Assembly: GCF_004361855.1 (NCBI RefSeq)
Contig: NZ_SNWQ01000012.1
Span: 133,044 to 197,043, forward strand
Origin: Kribbella caucasensis
GTDB taxonomy: Bacteria; Actinomycetota; Actinomycetes; Propionibacteriales; Kribbellaceae
Reading direction: 5' to 3'
Length of the DNA stretch: 64,000 nt
In this document: in pieces, positions 13,858 through 62,430 of the stretch
How the letters are laid out: the number at the start of each line of letters is the position of its first letter
Position numbering within the stretch: position 1 is the stretch's first letter
The notes under the pieces: model-generated
Told to the model about the DNA's origin: nothing
The model's database searches: none
Seen by the model: only the letters and a program-made list of their open reading frames with translations
Program-made: the position numbers and the translations under genes

Positions 13858-14315
13858 GAAACCCCGTCCTTCAAGGCGGGGAACGGCGACTGCCTTCCTT
13901 CGGGGATTGGGGATTGTCGGTCCCGGCTGATTGGATGGATTCCATGTCCCGGTTCCGGATGTACCCGACTCCCGCGCAGCAGGCTGCGTTGCGGGTGCAG
14001 TGCGGGCACGCCCGGTACGTGTGGAACCTGGCGTTTGAGCAGTGGTCGAGAGTGAATCCTGCGTACACGTCGCAGACCTGTAGCGTCTGTGGGCACTGCG
14101 CACCGGAGAACCGCGATAGCCAAGCGGTGTTCAGGTGCGTGGCCTGCGGGCATCGGGCGAATGCGGATGTGAATGCGGCTGTGAACATCGCGGCCGGACG
14201 GGCCGTCAGCGCACGCCGAGAGACGCCGCCACGGGCCTCGTTGAAGCGTGAACCTCAACGCTACCTCCGCGTAGTGGTTGGAATCCCCGTCCTTCAGGGC
14301 GGGGAGGACGTCAAG
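13858..14315 (+). mobile_element. IS605/IS1341-type element remnant with internally deleted tnpB
   Basis: The segment starts and ends near two copies of the same hairpin, CCCCGTCCTTCA-(A/G)-GGCGGGG (13862-13881 and 14285-14304), differing by one base. This hairpin plus GGAGGACGTCAAG is, from my knowledge of actinobacterial IS1341-type elements, the usual right end, where the TnpB guide (omega) RNA ends and the guide begins. Only about 450 bases remain between the ends; an intact element would be about 1.3 kb. No tnpA is present. Exact ends are approximate. The downstream end lies directly on the 5' end of the copper-binding ycnI-like gene. Confidence 0.7.
13935..14306 (+). pseudogene. tnpB: tnpB with an in-frame internal deletion
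   Basis: The reading frame begins like TnpB (MDSMSRFRMYPTPAQQAALR...HARYVWNLAFEQW) and then jumps straight to the C-terminal zinc ribbon (TCSVCGHCAPEN...CVACGHRANADVNAAVNIAAG). About 280 residues, including the first two RuvC acidic residues, are missing, so it cannot be an active nuclease. Both zinc Cys pairs and the last RuvC Asp (NADVNAA) remain. There is no stop codon at the normal TnpB end: the frame passes through the right-end hairpin and on into the ycnI-like gene until 15089. Confidence 0.8.
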
Positions 14316-24944: not shown

Positions 24945-26170
24945 GCAACCCAGCTGTTCGTACACCGGTCGCTGCGACCCAGGTGCCCGGCGACCTGCGG
25001 ATGGTGCGGCGATTGTGGCCGTTCCTGCTGGCGTCGACGGTCAGCCTGATCCCGTTCACCGTGTTCGGCATGTACTTGGTGCCGATCGCGGCGGCGGCCG
25101 ACGGCACGGTGGCGGAGATCGGCGGGCTGCGGGGGCTCGGCGGACTCGCGGCGCTGATCGTCGGATTCGCGCTCGCCCCGCTGATCGACCGGCTCGCCCG
25201 TGAACTGGTCGCGGCGTGTGGCCTCGCCCTGCTGGGGGTTTCGGCCGCACTCGGTGCTGTCGGCAACATCTTCGCGCTGGCCGCGTTCTGCTTGCTGATC
25301 GGGGCGTCGACGTCGATCCTCGCGCCGTCGATCGGGGCCGCCGCGGCAGACCGGTTCCGATCGCCGGCTGCGGCCGGTCGCGCGGCGACACTGGTCTCGG
25401 CGACCACGTCGATGATGGCGATGCTGGCCGCGCCCGTCCTCGCAGTACCGGGGCTGTTGTGGGGTTGGCGGGGGAATCTGCTGGCCGCGTCGGTGATTTC
25501 GCTGGCGTTGTCGGCCGCGTTCTTCTGGCGTGGGCGGGGGCGGAAGGCGCCGATGCGGGCTGAGGGTGCGGAGCGGATGAGTTACCTGGCGACGTACCGG
25601 GTGCTGGCCCGGATTCCGGGGGCTGTGCCGTTGCTGGTGGTGGCGATGCTGCGGACGGCGGCGTTCATGGGGTACTTGGCGTACCTGGCCGCTTTCTATG
25701 ACGACAAGTTCGACCTGCAGCCGGGGTGGTTCGCGCTGGTGTGGTCGCTGAGCGGGGCGTCGTTCTTCCTGGGCAACCTGTTCGCGGGGCGGTACATCGC
25801 ACTCGAGCGCCCCTGGATCAGTCCCGAGCGCATGCTGGTCGTCGGCGCAGGGGTGGCGCTGGTGAGTGTGGCGGGCTTCTACTTCGCGCCGACGCTTCCG
25901 CTGACGCTGTTGCTGACCGCACTGATGGGTGCGAGCCACGCGACCATCGCGGCCTGCGTGACCACGCTGTTGGTCCGTCGTAGCGGGGATCTCCGTGGGT
26001 CCGCGCTCAGCGTCAACGCGGCGGGGATGAGCCTCGGGACGTTCCTCGGCGCCGCCCTCGGAGGTCTCGGCCTCGGCCTGGGCGGCTACCCCGGCACGGC
26101 GCTCACCTTCACCGTCATCACCCTGCTCGCCGTTCTGCTGTCTCTGCGCGTACGCCGCTCACCGGGATGA
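24941..26170 (+). CDS. MFS transporter, likely small-molecule exporter
   Basis: A 409-residue protein with about twelve hydrophobic helices in two halves separated by a basic cytoplasmic loop (WRGRGRKAPMRAEGAERM). The signature loop after helix 2 is AALIVGFALAPLIDRLARE. It resembles drug/metabolite:proton antiporters (YnfM/AraJ-like). As the last gene of the ABC-PLP-DUF364 operon, the simplest role is export of the compound that the SBP-ABC system later recovers. GTG start within the upstream stop. Confidence 0.85.
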   Translation: MSNPAVRTPVAATQVPGDLRMVRRLWPFLLASTVSLIPFTVFGMYLVPIAAAADGTVAEIGGLRGLGGLAALIVGFALAPLIDRLARELVAACGLALLGVSAALGAVGNIFALAAFCLLIGASTSILAPSIGAAAADRFRSPAAAGRAATLVSATTSMMAMLAAPVLAVPGLLWGWRGNLLAASVISLALSAAFFWRGRGRKAPMRAEGAERMSYLATYRVLARIPGAVPLLVVAMLRTAAFMGYLAYLAAFYDDKFDLQPGWFALVWSLSGASFFLGNLFAGRYIALERPWISPERMLVVGAGVALVSVAGFYFAPTLPLTLLLTALMGASHATIAACVTTLLVRRSGDLRGSALSVNAAGMSLGTFLGAALGGLGLGLGGYPGTALTFTVITLLAVLLSLRVRRSPG

Positions 26171-26358
26171 TCCCCTTCATGCAAACGCGACGCCGGGGTC
26201 GAGCCCTGCTGTGGCCGATAGCGCCAAGGCGCACGTCAACGGCCATCGCCACGGCCGACACTGGAGCCTGTAACCGGCCGCGCCTGGCGAGGTCACAACC
26301 GGCAGGTGTCGATGGCGGGCCTTCTTCCTGCAAATAAGGCGAGGTCAGCGACGCCGAT

Positions 26359-26388
26359 TTGATAACTCGAACATATGTTCGATAAGAT
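26359..26388 (+). promoter_or_regulatory. LexA (SOS) box inside a leaderless promoter
   Basis: TCGAACATATGTTCGA (26367-26382) is a perfect 16-base palindrome and an exact match to the Gram-positive/actinobacterial LexA consensus CGAAC-N4-GTTCG. It fills the 18-base spacer between TTGATA (26359-26364) and TAAGAT (26383-26388). The ATG at 26395 follows 6 bases later, so the message should be leaderless and DNA-damage inducible. Confidence 0.88.
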
Positions 26389-26394
26389 CGGTGC

Positions 26395-26598
26395 ATGTTC
26401 GAAGGAGACTTGTCAGGGCTCACCGCGGCCGAGGTACTCCGTACCGTGCGGGTCGTGGACGAAGGTGAAGTCGAAGACGATCTGGTGCGCGACATGACCG
26501 ACGTGCTCACCTTGTTCTGCGCCCGCATGTACGGCAAGCGCGCCGCCGGGAAGCGGTCGAAGAAGGCGCTCGCCGCTGTGGCGGGTGAGGGCGCGTGA
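26395..26598 (+). pseudogene. Chimeric mini-ORF: DUF222/HNH N-terminus joined to IS607 TnpA C-terminus
   Basis: A 67-codon frame. Its first ~16 residues, MFEGDLSGLTAAEVL, resemble the start of actinobacterial DUF222/HNH (13E12) proteins, which are often SOS-regulated. The remainder, VVDEGEVEDDLVRDMTDVL then TLFCARMYGKRAAGKRSKKAL, is the C-terminal tail of the IS607-family serine recombinase TnpA; the catalytic domain is gone. The stop overlaps the tnpB GTG as in intact IS607 elements. So an IS607-type insertion or deletion fused a lost host gene's first codons to the element. The mini-ORF probably serves only to deliver ribosomes to tnpB. Confidence 0.7.
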
Positions 26599-27806
26599 GT
26601 CACAAGCAAGGCATCAGGTTTGAACTCGCTCCCGACCCCGGGCAGGCCGTCGTCATGGGCCGGCACTGCGGACTGTCGCGGGTGGTGGAGAACTTCTGCC
26701 TGGAGACGGTCCGCAAGAAGTGGTCGCAGCGCAAGGCGGAGGAGTCCTACGGCGTCACCGGAGATGACCTGACCAAGGTGCCGTGGTCGGCCCCCGCGCT
26801 GGAGAAGGAGTGGCGCGCGGCCCACCCCAAGCGGTTCCCGTGGTTCGCCGAGAACAAGCTGTCCTCCCGTGTCCCGAAGGAGGCGTGCCGGGTTCGTGCC
26901 GCCGGGTTCTCCAACTATCTCAAGTCGAAGCAGGGCGTACGCCGGGGCGCGAGGATGGGCTTTCCCTCGTGGCGGAAGCGCAAGCACGGCTCCCGGTTCC
27001 GCTACGACGCCGACCGGGCCAAGCCGCGGGATGCCCGCACCGTGCGCCTGCCCGCCGTCGGCGATGTCGCAACGCGTGAGGACATGTCCTGGCTCACCGG
27101 CCGGATCGCAACAGGCCAGGCACGGATCCTGGGTGCCACTGTCCGGGAGCAGGCCGGGCGCTGGTGGATTTCGTTCCAGATCGAGGTGGACCGGGACGAC
27201 ATCAACAAGGATCGTCAGGCCGATGCCGAGGCTCCCGCGTGTGGTATCGACCTGGGCCTGAAGACGTTCGCCGTTATCAAGAACAGTGACAGCACTACCG
27301 AGGAGATCCATGCCCCCAAACCACTCAAGGCCGCACAGCGCGCGTTGAAGCGCGCCAACCGCAAGCTCGCCCGCACCGCGGAGGACTCCAAGAACCGGGC
27401 CAGGGCCCGCACCCGTGTCGGCCGACTCCATCTGAAGGTGGCCGACCGGCGGCGGGATTTTCTGCACAAGACCACTACGAGGCTGACGAGAACCAAGTCC
27501 GCCATCGCGGTGGAGACCCTGCACGTCAAGGGCATGGTGAAGAACCGCCGGCTCGCCCGTGCCGTCAGTGATGCCGGGTTCGGCGAGTTCGTTCGCCAAC
27601 TGGACTACAAGGCCGAATGGTACGGCTCGACCGTATGGAAAGCCGACCGCTGGTTCCCGTCGTCCAAAACGTGCGGGGACTGTGGAGGCATCAACCGCGC
27701 CCTGGTCCTCGCGGACCGCACCTGGGGGTGTCCCGGCTGCGGCGTCCTGCACGACCGGGACGAGAACGCGGCGGGCAACCTGCTCGCCGCGATGCTCACG
27801 GACTGA
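26595..27806 (+). CDS. tnpB: RNA-guided nuclease TnpB, apparently intact
   Basis: A 403-residue TnpB, full length for the IS607 branch. RuvC catalytic residues are all present: Asp219 (CGIDLGLKTFAV), Glu307 (AIAVETLHVKGM) and the C-terminal Asp (HDRDENAAGNLL, 387/389). The zinc ribbon has Cys360/363 (TCGDCG) and Cys379/382 (CPGCG). The N-terminal wedge/REC region is basic and lacks frameshifts. GTG start overlaps the mini-ORF stop. TnpB cleaves DNA beside a target-adjacent motif using a guide from the element's 3' end. Here transcription would start at the LexA-controlled promoter 200 bases upstream. Confidence 0.92.
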   Translation: MSHKQGIRFELAPDPGQAVVMGRHCGLSRVVENFCLETVRKKWSQRKAEESYGVTGDDLTKVPWSAPALEKEWRAAHPKRFPWFAENKLSSRVPKEACRVRAAGFSNYLKSKQGVRRGARMGFPSWRKRKHGSRFRYDADRAKPRDARTVRLPAVGDVATREDMSWLTGRIATGQARILGATVREQAGRWWISFQIEVDRDDINKDRQADAEAPACGIDLGLKTFAVIKNSDSTTEEIHAPKPLKAAQRALKRANRKLARTAEDSKNRARARTRVGRLHLKVADRRRDFLHKTTTRLTRTKSAIAVETLHVKGMVKNRRLARAVSDAGFGEFVRQLDYKAEWYGSTVWKADRWFPSSKTCGDCGGINRALVLADRTWGCPGCGVLHDRDENAAGNLLAAMLTD

Positions 27807-27935
27807 ACAAGAACGACCTCGCCGGGAAGTTGCCCGGAGAACCGAAACGCCCGTGGAGACCACATAAGACCTCTCTCCGGAGTTGGCAGCGGTCAGCGAA
27901 GCAGGAAGAGCCGAAGCGAGAACATCGCTGAGACT
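27780..27935 (+). ncRNA. Candidate omega RNA (TnpB guide RNA scaffold)
   Basis: The 3' end of tnpB and the following ~130 bases contain hairpins CCGGG-aagttg-CCCGG, a CTCTCCGGAG fold and GCGA-gaaca-TCGC, in the position where IS607/IS605 elements encode the guide RNA. No conserved end sequence was identified, so the guide start is unknown. Confidence 0.4.
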
Positions 27936-27960
27936 CACTCAACGGTTATCGTTCCGTCTT

Positions 27961-28644
27961 ATGGACAACCTGCCCGAGCCTTCCAATCCGCATGCGCACC
28001 TGCGCGCGTCCGACGAGGACCGCGACCAGGTGGTCGAGGTTCTGCGGGACGCGTTGATGGCCGGGCGGCTGACCCAGGACGAACACGCCGACCGGCTCGA
28101 GCAGACGTTGAGCGCGCGCACCCTCGGCGAACTGGAGCCGATCACCCAGGACCTCGTCGTACCGGGTCAGCAGTTCCGCCGGGCGGCGGCCGCGCCCGTA
28201 CCCACGCCCGGGACGGGCGTCGTACCGATCGAGGAGCTGGCCAATCCGGCGGACAGCTTCGACACGGTGGTCAGCATCTTCGGCGGCGGTGAGCGGAAGG
28301 GCCGCTGGCGGGTGAAGCGGCGGACGAACGCGCTCGCCCTGTTCGGCGGGTACGACCTGGACATGACGGATGCGGTGTTCGAGGGGCGTGAGGTCACCGT
28401 CTACGCGTTCGCGATCTTCGGTGGGATCGACATCACGGTGCCGGAAGGTGTCGAGGTCCGCACCCATGGCGCCGGGATCTTCGGCGGCTTCGGCGGTCGC
28501 GGGGCCAAGGAGATCGATCCGACGGCGCCGGTGGTCGTCCTCAAGGGACTGGCGCTCTTCGGCGGGGTCGGCGCCCAGGTCAGTAAGCCGAAGAAGCGCA
28601 AGGGACCGCATAACCCACACGGACACGGTCAGTTGGGCCACTGA
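27961..28644 (+). CDS. DUF1707 plus LiaF/toast_rack-like C-terminal domain protein
   Basis: A 227-residue soluble protein. Residues about 12-65 (LRASDEDRDQVVEVLRDALMAGRLTQDEHADRL...TLGELEPITQDL) are the DUF1707 helical domain. Residues about 95-210 are glycine-rich beta repeats (SIFGGGERKG, ALFGGYDLDMTDA, AIFGGIDITVPEGVEV, GIFGGFGG, ALFGGVGAQ) typical of LiaF-like cell-envelope stress proteins. Membrane helices are lacking. The tail is basic and His-rich. TATCGT lies 8 bases before the ATG, suggesting a leaderless message just after the TnpB element. Confidence 0.85.
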   Translation: MDNLPEPSNPHAHLRASDEDRDQVVEVLRDALMAGRLTQDEHADRLEQTLSARTLGELEPITQDLVVPGQQFRRAAAAPVPTPGTGVVPIEELANPADSFDTVVSIFGGGERKGRWRVKRRTNALALFGGYDLDMTDAVFEGREVTVYAFAIFGGIDITVPEGVEVRTHGAGIFGGFGGRGAKEIDPTAPVVVLKGLALFGGVGAQVSKPKKRKGPHNPHGHGQLGH

Positions 28645-47076: not shown

Positions 47077-48978
47077 CTAAGGACCGTCAGCCCAGGGGTC
47101 CGGATAGCCCGTGAGGTTGCGGTGGAACTCGTCGGCAGCGGGGTTGCGGTATGGGCGTGCGGTGTTGCCGAGTGGGTGAGCGAATCCGCCGAGTGGGCGA
47201 GTCGCCCGGCCGGGTGGGTCCGCGTATCCGCGCTTTGGTTGAGCGGCGTCGTCGATCGGCCCGTCGCCAGAGGGAACTGGCCCGGTGTGGCAGGCAGCAG
47301 CTGGTATGGGGCTGGTGTCCGGTGTGGTGGGCGCGATCGGCCCCGGCGCGGGTTTGGTTGGCCCGGGCTCGGTTGTGGTTGGCCTGACACCTGGTGGGGT
47401 TTCGGGTGCAGGCGCGGGTGAGCCGCCGCCTGGCCCCGGGGCGGGTGGGCTGCCGGGCGGCACGTCGGATGGGCTGGTGTTCCAGGGATCCGGTGGCGCG
47501 TCGGATGGGCTTGTGGTCCTGGGATCCGGGGGCGCGGCAGGAGTTCGGCTGCGGGTTGGGGTGGCCCAGTCGGGGCGGGACAGCACCGGGCGACCGTTGA
47601 CCATCTCGATGGTCCAGTGGCCGTGATGGATTTCGATGTGGTGGGCCTTGCAGAGCAGGACCAGGTTGTCGACCCGGGTCGGGCCGCCGTTGGCCCAGTG
47701 CACGAGGTGGTGGGCCTCGCACATCGCCGGTGGAGCGCCACAGACCACGCAGCCCTTGTCTCGGGCGTTCAACGCACGCCGCATGGCCCGGTTGACGAAG
47801 CGTTCTTCGGTGCCGACATCGAGGGGCTCGGAGTTGGCGCCGAGGACGAGGGGGATGATGCCGGCGTCGCAGGCCAGCCGGCGGATCGCGGCCGCGGACA
47901 GGGTGCCGCCGTGGGCCAGGTCGCCGGTGCCGGTGCCGGCGAGCAGGTCGGCCAGCGAGATGGTGACGGTGATGTGGGGTTTGATGCCGCCGTGGGCCGG
48001 GGCGGCACCGGTGGCGGCGGCGGTGTGCAGGATGTCGGTGAGGCCGTCGGCCTGGAGTTTCCCGCGGCTGCGCGGGTCCCGCTGCCCGTCGGGGGTCTTG
48101 TGGGGCTTGGAGTTGGCGAACACCATCGTCTGCAGCAGCTCCGCGTTGTCACCGGCCAGGAACCCGCCGAACTTGATGCCGTCGTCGGTCCGCTTCAACC
48201 AGAGCCGTTCGTTCGCGGCGGCGCGTTTCTCGGCCGGTTCGGGGCCGTCGGTGTCGAGCCGGTTGCGGACCTCCCGGCCGAGCTTGCGCAGCTCGCCGGG
48301 CGGCAGGACCTGGGCGGCCTTGACCATCTGTTCCTCGGCGAACCGCAGGGACTCGGCCGAGACCCGCGCCGACGACGGGATCTTGTCCAGCGCATCGACG
48401 ATCACGGCCGCCTGCCCAGGGTGCAGCACCAGCGGACCGGCCGCCGGCTCCCCATCCAGCTCCGCCCCGTCCGCGTGCTCGGTCTGCTCCGCCGCGTCCG
48501 CGTGCTCGGTCTGCTCCGCCGCGTCCGCGCCCGCCGCTGTGTTCGCCCCCGCATCGGTTGCCGCCGTCTGTCCGTCCCGGTCGGCGTCGGCGGTCGCCTC
48601 CGCATGCGCAGACGTCTCGCCGCTCGTCGCGTTCGCCGTCACGTCGGCCGCGGTTTCCTCTGCTGGCGCTGGGGTTTCGGCGTCGGGTGGTGTGGGGTCG
48701 GTGTGGAGGGCGGCGGAGACCGCTGTGTACTTGGGAAGGGCGTGGGCGAGTTTGAGGTCTCGGCGGACCTCGGTCGGATCGAGGCGGTGGCGGATCGCGA
48801 TCAGGGTGACCGTGTCGCGGGCGCCGAGTTCGGTGGCGTAGCCGTCGGTGTCCAACGCGGCCAGCAACTCCAAGCGGCGGGTGGACAGGCGGGTGAGGTC
48901 GGCCTGCAACTCGTCGAGGGCCGTCAGCTTGTCGCTGCCGGTCATCGACCACGCGGGCCGCTCATCCAACCTGTCCAT
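47077..48978 (-). CDS. DUF222 / HNH endonuclease (13E12 family)
   Basis: A 633-residue protein. The N-terminal DUF222 helical region has an acidic, Ala/Thr-rich insertion including the tandem repeat DAAEQTEHA (about residues 150-170). The HNH domain near residues 440-490 reads CVVCGAPPAMCEAHHLVHWANGG...NLVLLCKAHH, with zinc Cys pairs and the catalytic His-His. A Pro-rich tail of ~150 residues with PSDAPPDPWN/PSDVPP near-repeats follows. The family is multicopy in actinobacteria and often SOS-linked, but its physiological target is not established. The start is ATG 48978; no strong ribosome site. The promoter region carries the CCTTAT-ct-ATAAGG palindrome. Confidence 0.85.
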   Translation of the reverse strand: MDRLDERPAWSMTGSDKLTALDELQADLTRLSTRRLELLAALDTDGYATELGARDTVTLIAIRHRLDPTEVRRDLKLAHALPKYTAVSAALHTDPTPPDAETPAPAEETAADVTANATSGETSAHAEATADADRDGQTAATDAGANTAAGADAAEQTEHADAAEQTEHADGAELDGEPAAGPLVLHPGQAAVIVDALDKIPSSARVSAESLRFAEEQMVKAAQVLPPGELRKLGREVRNRLDTDGPEPAEKRAAANERLWLKRTDDGIKFGGFLAGDNAELLQTMVFANSKPHKTPDGQRDPRSRGKLQADGLTDILHTAAATGAAPAHGGIKPHITVTISLADLLAGTGTGDLAHGGTLSAAAIRRLACDAGIIPLVLGANSEPLDVGTEERFVNRAMRRALNARDKGCVVCGAPPAMCEAHHLVHWANGGPTRVDNLVLLCKAHHIEIHHGHWTIEMVNGRPVLSRPDWATPTRSRTPAAPPDPRTTSPSDAPPDPWNTSPSDVPPGSPPAPGPGGGSPAPAPETPPGVRPTTTEPGPTKPAPGPIAPTTPDTSPIPAAACHTGPVPSGDGPIDDAAQPKRGYADPPGRATRPLGGFAHPLGNTARPYRNPAADEFHRNLTGYPDPWADGP

Positions 48979-62083: not shown

Positions 62084-62430
62084 TGAAGCTCGACCACGTG
62101 CAGGTGTCCTGTCCGGCCGGTGGAGAGGAGGTCGCGCGGGCGTTCTACCGGGACGCGCTCGGGATGACCGAGGTGGAGAAGCCGCCGCTGCTCCAGGCTC
62201 GGGGCGGGTGCTGGTTCCGGGCCGGCGAGGCGGAGATCCACATCGGCGTCGAACCCGTGTTCCAACCAGCGAAGAAGGCGCATCCGGCGTTCAAGGTCGA
62301 CGACCTGGACGCGCTGGCGGCCAAGCTCGAGGGACTCGGCTACCCGATCATCTGGGACAACGACACGATCCCGGGCCGCCGGCGCTTCCACACCGCCGAC
62401 GGCCACGGAAACCGCATCGAAATCGTGTAG
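62080..62430 (+). CDS. Glyoxalase/VOC-family protein
   Basis: A 116-residue VOC protein: LDHVQVSCPAGGEEVARAFYRDALGM, ARGGCWFRAGEAEIHIGVE and HTADGHGNRIEIV, forming two beta-alpha-beta-beta-beta units. Metal ligands include His5-like and the final Glu. GTG 62080 is preferred because AGGAGGG ends 6 bases upstream; an ATG follows directly. It shares a transcript with the methyltransferase under the MarR boxes. Substrate unknown; bleomycin-resistance-like and lactoylglutathione-lyase-like roles are both possible. Confidence 0.87.
   Translation: MMKLDHVQVSCPAGGEEVARAFYRDALGMTEVEKPPLLQARGGCWFRAGEAEIHIGVEPVFQPAKKAHPAFKVDDLDALAAKLEGLGYPIIWDNDTIPGRRRFHTADGHGNRIEIV

What the first reader, a model, noticed from the sequence alone, without database searches (positions are those of the whole stretch)
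26359..27806. RNA-guided nuclease TnpB placed under a LexA (SOS) promoter
A perfect LexA box sits inside a well-formed leaderless promoter, directly upstream of a short chimeric ORF that overlaps an intact, catalytically complete TnpB. The recombinase is gone, so the TnpB is no longer serving transposition in cis. A guide-directed nuclease induced by DNA damage could act in defence, genome editing of other element copies, or simply be a toxic accident held silent by LexA. I know of no described SOS-controlled TnpB. LexA box and RuvC residues are seen directly; induction is inference.
Basis: partly seen in the sequence, partly recalled or inferred. Interest (0 to 1): 0.85.

Follow-up and report, generated by a model that had tools for sequence, protein, structure and literature searches.

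The report
TnpB nuclease behind captured SOS promoter
In this bacterium a leftover jumping-gene nuclease that is guided by RNA has acquired, by DNA rearrangement, what looks like the DNA-damage switch of another gene, and two copies of that hybrid were found in the genome, so damage may turn the nuclease on; this has not been tested here.

Summary
A perfect 16-bp LexA box (26367-26382) lies between the -35 and -10 of a leaderless promoter, followed by a 67-aa chimeric ORF (26395-26598) that overlaps an open TnpB (26595-27806) with the RuvC motifs. The new point is where the promoter comes from. Promoter plus first 15 codons are the 5' end of a five-copy gene family, three members with a perfect LexA box; from codon 16 the ORF is the tail of an IS607 recombinase. 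A second copy of the chimera (contig C14, same junction, box intact, tnpB open) points to one fusion event and a unit that was later duplicated or moved. TnpB in the two copies differs mainly at synonymous sites (dN/dS 0.16), but so do the copies without a box. Against a host function: no congener has the junction or a close tnpB (0 of 37), the site was empty in the 29 relatives looked at, the second copy has a frameshift in the leader ORF, and no full-length recombinase of this type was found in the genome. Best reading: SOS-promoter capture by a recombinase-less IS607 element, so tnpB and its guide RNA probably belong to the LexA regulon. Induction and any benefit are untested. The paper searches listed no SOS-controlled TnpB.

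The parts
26167..26247 (+). Left part of the insert, origin unknown; host flank ends at GGG 26164-26166
   Evidence: No strong match outside this locus among the loci held; left and right flank homology of congener G035 abut here with a 2-base overlap (L257)
26248..26354 (+). Left part of the unit shared with the second chimeric copy; in that copy it is preceded by the 5' part of an IS607 tnpA
26355..26439 (+). Promoter and first 15 codons shared with a five-copy gene family (HNH signature)
   Evidence: 86-93% identity over 73-85 bases to C21, C3, C23; 93-94% over 46-47 bases to C19 and C6; all five matches stop at 26439
26359..26388 (+). -35 TTGATA / -10 TAAGAT, leaderless promoter
26367..26382 (+). 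LexA (SOS) box TCGAACATATGTTCGA
   Evidence: consensus for M. tuberculosis in PMC4181829 section 27
26395..26598 (+). Chimeric 67-aa ORF: 15 codons of the captured gene fused in frame to 52 codons of the IS607 TnpA tail; probable translational leader of tnpB (inferred)
26595..27806 (+). tnpB, IS607-type RNA-guided endonuclease, 403 aa
27807..27945 (+). Right end / presumed omega RNA scaffold, ending CAACGG
   Evidence: Conserved up to CAACGG in the five G000 copies and in L057, L058, L059, then divergent; single-sequence fold of 27807-27966 no more stable than shuffles (z 0.09); no Rfam match
27946..27966 (+). Presumed guide: flank sequence up to and over the start codon of the downstream DUF1707 gene
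   Evidence: Position next to the right end; similar sequence at the congeners' empty sites; guide role inferred from recalled TnpB biology

Best explanation
An IS607-family element lost the inside of its recombinase gene (tnpA) and received in its place the SOS promoter and first 15 codons of another gene of an HNH-signature family. The fusion kept the reading frame into the tnpA tail, whose stop overlaps the tnpB start, so tnpB is now the second gene of a LexA-repressed leaderless transcript that also runs through the 3' omega RNA and guide. Shown: the sequence anatomy, the two copies with one junction, the open tnpB. Inferred: LexA represses and DNA damage induces this transcript; TnpB then forms with the guide RNA from the right flank. 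Most likely activity (inferred): cleavage of the empty allele of its own insertion site during SOS, when recombinational repair is active, which would copy the element back (retention), rather than host defence.
For: The box is one of only 10 perfect ones in the genome, 0 in the reversed control. Three of the five genes with the same 5' end carry a perfect box at the same place. Another perfect box precedes an imuA'/imuB-like pair (gene names recalled from the sequence), and a near-perfect box TCGAACAGGTGTTCGG lies upstream of the best lexA match, so this motif is very likely the SOS box of this organism. The second copy C14:45020-46655 has the same junction and the same 16-base box. tnpB of the two copies: dS 0.254, dN 0.041, ratio 0.16, while the linked upstream leader differs at 16 of 92 sites and fourfold sites at 40 of 214. 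The right end is conserved to CAACGG. SOS control of 13E12 HNH genes in M. tuberculosis is published (PMC4181829 section 27; PMC5005354, one passage).
Against: No transcript or binding data. No congener has the junction (0 of 37; four had only 30-48-base matches at E about 2e-4 to 6e-4, with no box and no tnpB nearby) or a close tnpB (best 50% over part, 40% over full length). The second copy has a 1-base deletion that ends its leader ORF early and a further 12-base deletion, so coupled translation is lost there. Full conservation of the box between copies is weak evidence (P about 0.05 at the local rate), and the whole -35 to ATG stretch changed at 5 of 36 sites, close to the upstream rate. 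The two chimeric tnpB genes are not clearly sisters in the tree (support 0.39 and 0.67), so conversion between copies cannot be excluded. The three tnpB copies without the box show the same dN/dS (0.15-0.17 among themselves), so constraint on tnpB does not speak for SOS control.
Confidence: 0.68

Rival explanations
1. Neutral relic: the fusion is an accident in a dying IS607 family; tnpB is still open only because there has been little time, and SOS control has no consequence.
For: No full-length recombinase of this type found in the genome; copies C14:32194 and C27 are truncated; absent from 37 congeners; leader frameshift in copy 2.
Against: Five tnpB copies all open, pairwise dN/dS 0.145-0.177 at dS 0.21-0.30, much divergence for open frames to persist without constraint, unless it arose elsewhere before arrival.
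Confidence: 0.4
2. Host-beneficial SOS effector: the nuclease was kept for defence against incoming DNA such as induced prophages or plasmids.
For: SOS control would fit defence; TnpB looks intact.
Against: The presumed guide is the host flank, similar to the conserved DUF1707 start region; not found in any of 37 congeners; the viral-contig scan found no relative of the chimeric ORF.
Confidence: 0.07
3. The LexA box acts on a neighbouring gene and tnpB is a bystander.
For: A case that may be of this kind exists elsewhere in the genome: a TnpB C-terminal fragment lies beside a near-perfect box next to a divergent radical-SAM-like gene.
Against: Here the box sits inside the promoter of the ORF that overlaps tnpB; the upstream MFS gene runs towards it and ends about 190 bases before; none of 29 relatives has a box (up to one mismatch) around this site.
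Confidence: 0.05

Closest known systems
IS607-family transposon TnpB (RNA-guided endonuclease)
   Same: TnpB with RuvC motifs and TNB domain, tnpA tail overlapping tnpB, conserved right end ending in GG at a GG-type junction
   Different: tnpA interior replaced by a foreign SOS-type promoter; not autonomous
ISDra2 of Deinococcus radiodurans
   Same: TnpB homologue (that 8bf8 and 8h1j are ISDra2 TnpB is recalled); link with DNA damage
   Different: There irradiation stimulates TnpA-catalysed excision and insertion and TnpB is dispensable (PMC2806898, passages); here the link would be a LexA box on tnpB
13E12 HNH genes of the mycobacterial LexA regulon
   Same: Like the promoter source here: repeated genes with an HNH signature and LexA boxes
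   Different: The donor-type genes here are not recognised by the DUF222 profile
TldR (TnpB-derived RNA-guided transcription factors; PMC13418256, search listing and abstract start only)
   Same: TnpB-derived protein taken into regulation (details recalled)
   Different: Here the RuvC motifs are intact, so a nuclease is expected

Membership tests
IS607 TnpB | TnpB profile match | tested here: met
   guided_TnpB NF040570 249.9 bits over cut-off 100; IS607_TnpB NF038280 is the best-scoring model (320.6) but under its cut-off 350; PF07282 and PF01385 over cut-off
IS607 TnpB | RuvC catalytic D/E/D | tested here: met
   Motifs at 217, 306, 386, aligned; roles recalled
IS607 TnpB | omega RNA from the 3' end with flank-derived guide | not testable with these tools
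   Right end conserved; no Rfam match; no RNA data
IS607 element (autonomous) | intact serine recombinase tnpA | tested here: not met
   Only positions 147-186 of 187 remain here; best in the genome 50-187
LexA regulon gene | LexA box in the promoter | tested here: met
LexA regulon gene | LexA binding and induction by DNA damage | not testable with these tools
   Needs gel shift and RNA-seq
13E12 / DUF222-HNH (promoter donor) | DUF222 profile match | tested here: not met
   No PF02720 match for the donor-type genes; one plasmid tblastn hit, annotated HNH signature, 36% over the C-terminal 22%; likeness to 13E12 is recalled

The most novel reading that the evidence does not exclude
A lineage of recombinase-less IS607 elements carries an SOS promoter as part of the element, spreads as a unit by recombinase supplied in trans, and fires its RNA-guided nuclease only during DNA damage, when cutting the empty site is most likely to be repaired by copying the element back.
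Probability: 0.2. Interest if true: 0.75.

Novelty: new variant of a known kind. Interest (0 to 1): 0.52.

Why it matters
If induction is shown, it would tie an RNA-guided nuclease, a relative of Cas12, directly to the SOS response and show how solo TnpB genes can acquire regulation by promoter capture. It also gives a natural test of whether TnpB activity timed to recombinational repair helps an element persist.

Tried and rejected
Looked for other LexA-tnpB pairs: of 121 TNB-domain matches in 38 genomes of the genus I took the upstream DNA of 120 (C44:58-249 left out, it lies at a contig start; L214 was cut to 240 bases and so has no upstream). Perfect box: 2 of 120, both chimeras. Up to one mismatch: 8 of 120, against a mean of 0.8 in five first-order Markov replicates; besides the two chimeras, four (L134, L148, L184, L207) lie 347-418 bases before the TNB end, inside tnpB, one (L187) lies 2258 bases before it, and one (L212) is a TnpB fragment beside a box. 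So no third intact case. Up to two mismatches: 45 of 120 against 16.2; these I did not look at one by one, so weaker boxes are not excluded.

Homologues elsewhere: order, 1 of 391 genomes, the own one (only 4 candidates per genome were scored, and one of the five own copies was missed); class, 3 of 394, the two others at 65-66% and without a box up to two mismatches. Genome contigs gave 15 relatives; I inspected the DNA of 7, including the four at 67-80% identity (L057-L060), none with the core GAACNNNNGTTC. Plasmids: no record covers 80% of the unit. Phages: TnpB matches under 60% identity only. Viral contigs: no relative of the chimeric ORF.

Rejected: naming the donor gene family DUF222 outright, because the profiles do not match. 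A crude profile comparison with longest open frames of DUF222 loci was negative and one weak BLASTP match appeared; with so few, similar sequences it proves little. Rejected: reading the guide RNA from a stable fold (z 0.09). Origin of 26167-26247 not found. Classic enteric LexA pattern: no excess in the window (11 found, 17 expected).

Full report
What is there. The window holds a perfect palindromic LexA box at 26367-26382, between TTGATA (26359) and TAAGAT (ending 26388), with six bases between the -10 and the ATG at 26395. The ORF of 67 codons that starts there overlaps tnpB (26595-27806) by the sequence GTGA. TnpB hits the OrfB_IS605, Cas12f1-like_TNB and HTH_OrfB_IS605 models, aligns over residues 2-397 to an AI-designed nuclease (9yyg) and over 10-397 to the solved TnpB entries 8bf8 and 8h1j, and has the three RuvC motifs and two CxxC pairs.

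Where the promoter comes from. A search of the own genome with 26300-27960 shows two classes of partial match that meet at 26439/26440. The first class, five places (C21, C3, C23, C19, C6), matches only up to 26439: promoter and first 15 codons. These are starts of open frames of 551-705 codons that begin MFEGDLSGLTAAEVL. C21, C3 and C23 carry a perfect box at the same place; C19 and C6 do not. In four of the five the C-terminal part looks like an HNH endonuclease (recalled motif; the C6 frame ends differently; one plasmid tblastn hit to C3, 36% identity over 22% of it, is annotated HNH endonuclease signature). They remind me of the 13E12 family, whose members are LexA-controlled in Mycobacterium tuberculosis (PMC4181829 section 27, read whole; PMC5005354, one passage). 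But Pfam gives no match at E 0.001 for the five, Pfam and NCBIfam give nothing relevant at E 10 for the three scanned, and the DUF222 model, with 36 matches in this genome, does not list them. The second class matches from 26440 on: IS607 tnpA tail plus tnpB (C7, C14:32194; C27 from tnpB only). NCBIfam places residues 16-53 of the chimeric ORF on positions 147-186 of 187 of the IS607 transposase.

The second copy. C14:45020-46655 matches 91% over nearly the whole unit, including promoter, box and junction. To its left lies the 5' part of an IS607 tnpA (91% identity to C7 over 53 bases), with a helix-turn-helix-like stretch (recalled) spread over frames, and further left a stretch similar to the DNA left of the Streptomyces and Sphaerisporangium relatives. 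So the original event most simply replaced the inside of a tnpA by the SOS-promoter segment. In copy 2 a 1-base deletion early in the leader ORF ends it early and a 12-base deletion removes further bases; its tnpB is open.

Is the box real SOS regulation? The pattern TCGAACNNNNGTTCGA occurs 10 times in 9,457,695 bases, 0 times in the reversed control; in the 38 genomes of the genus it occurs 4-12 times each against 0-2 for the control. It is the published M. tuberculosis SOS box. One of the ten precedes an imuA'/imuB-like pair (names recalled), and a near-perfect box lies upstream of the best lexA match. Binding and induction remain untested.

Selection. Between the two chimeric tnpB genes dS is 0.254 and dN 0.041, ratio 0.16. 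The ratio for all ten pairs among the five own copies is 0.145-0.177, box or no box, so it suggests that TnpB was kept functional but not that SOS control mattered. Differences between the two chimeras: 16 of 92 sites in the upstream leader, 40 of 214 fourfold sites, 5 of 36 from -35 to the ATG, 2 of 20 at 26366-26385, 0 of 16 in the box (P about 0.05), 1 of 44 plus one gap in the captured coding part, 9 of 147 plus 12 gap columns in the tnpA tail. The tnpB tree does not resolve the two chimeras as sisters (0.39, 0.67). If the fusion happened once, as the shared junction says, either the divergence followed it or later exchange between copies occurred.

Distribution. The junction is found in none of the 37 congeners; four show only short weak matches (30-48 bases), with no box up to one mismatch and no tnpB in the 3 kb around them. 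The closest tnpB in congeners is 40% identical over full length. The DUF1707 gene to the right is present in 38 of 38 genomes. In the 29 relatives whose locus I read (eight were not read) no insert of this kind lies at its start; 22 of the 29 also have the MFS gene on the left. In G035 (L257) left and right flank homology abut with an overlap of two bases, consistent with insertion at a GG (IS607 preference recalled). None of the 29 has a box with up to one mismatch nearby, and the 20 bases from 27947 match the start region with at most 2 mismatches in 12 of 29 and at most 5 in 26 of 29. The relatives in Sphaerisporangium and Streptomyces (80% each) also have damaged tnpA genes whose remnant stays open into the tnpB overlap, so loss of tnpA with a kept leader frame is seen again; they have no box.

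Mechanism. Shown: anatomy, one shared junction, open tnpB. Inferred: LexA holds the transcript silent; damage releases it; one transcript supplies TnpB and, from its 3' end, the guide RNA. The guide read from the right flank would aim at the empty version of this same site, where the sequence before and over the start codon of the DUF1707 gene is conserved. Cutting it while repair by recombination is active would restore the insert. This is a retention device in the sense known for TnpB (recalled), now timed by SOS. As to consequence for the cell, a neutral relic is about as likely.

Literature. Searches for TnpB with LexA and SOS (6 papers), TnpB with mitomycin (9), 13E12 with LexA (3), DUF222 with SOS (0), TnpB with IS607 and Streptomyces (2) and exapted TnpB (6) listed no SOS-controlled TnpB by title and start of abstract; of these papers I read passages of PMC2806898, PMC4181829 (and its section 27) and PMC5005354 only. 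The library lacks most subscription journals and preprints.

Noticed in passing
G000 C3, C21, C23, C19, C6 (L013, L012, L014, L015, L016): A five-copy family of 551-705-codon genes, HNH-like at the C-terminus in four, with near-identical 5' ends, three with perfect LexA boxes, and in most a small inverted repeat (CCTTG...CAAGG type) upstream; not recognised by Pfam; matches of their 5' end in congeners only marginal.
   Followed up: partly
L229 2916-4762 (G000 C6): A TnpB C-terminal fragment fused in frame to an AlkZ-like DNA glycosylase, its first ATG inside a near-perfect LexA box beside a divergent radical-SAM-like gene (name recalled).
   Followed up: partly
L011 (G000 C27, about 93200): A tnpB-only copy directly after the start of a MerR-like gene (recalled), so another tnpB may sit behind a host promoter.
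   Followed up: no
L057 and L058: Damaged tnpA genes in Sphaerisporangium and Streptomyces relatives whose remnant stays in frame into the tnpB overlap, suggesting selection on a leader ORF.
   Followed up: partly
26167-26247: About 80 bases at the left of the insert of unknown origin; the MFS gene's stop codon lies in it.
   Followed up: partly
14043-14189: Another, partial TNB-domain (TnpB-like) match in the window (C12:147086-147232).
   Followed up: no
47758-48417: A DUF222 match on the minus strand.
   Followed up: no
62251-62262: A second GAACNNNNGTTC core, not the full 16-base box.
   Followed up: no
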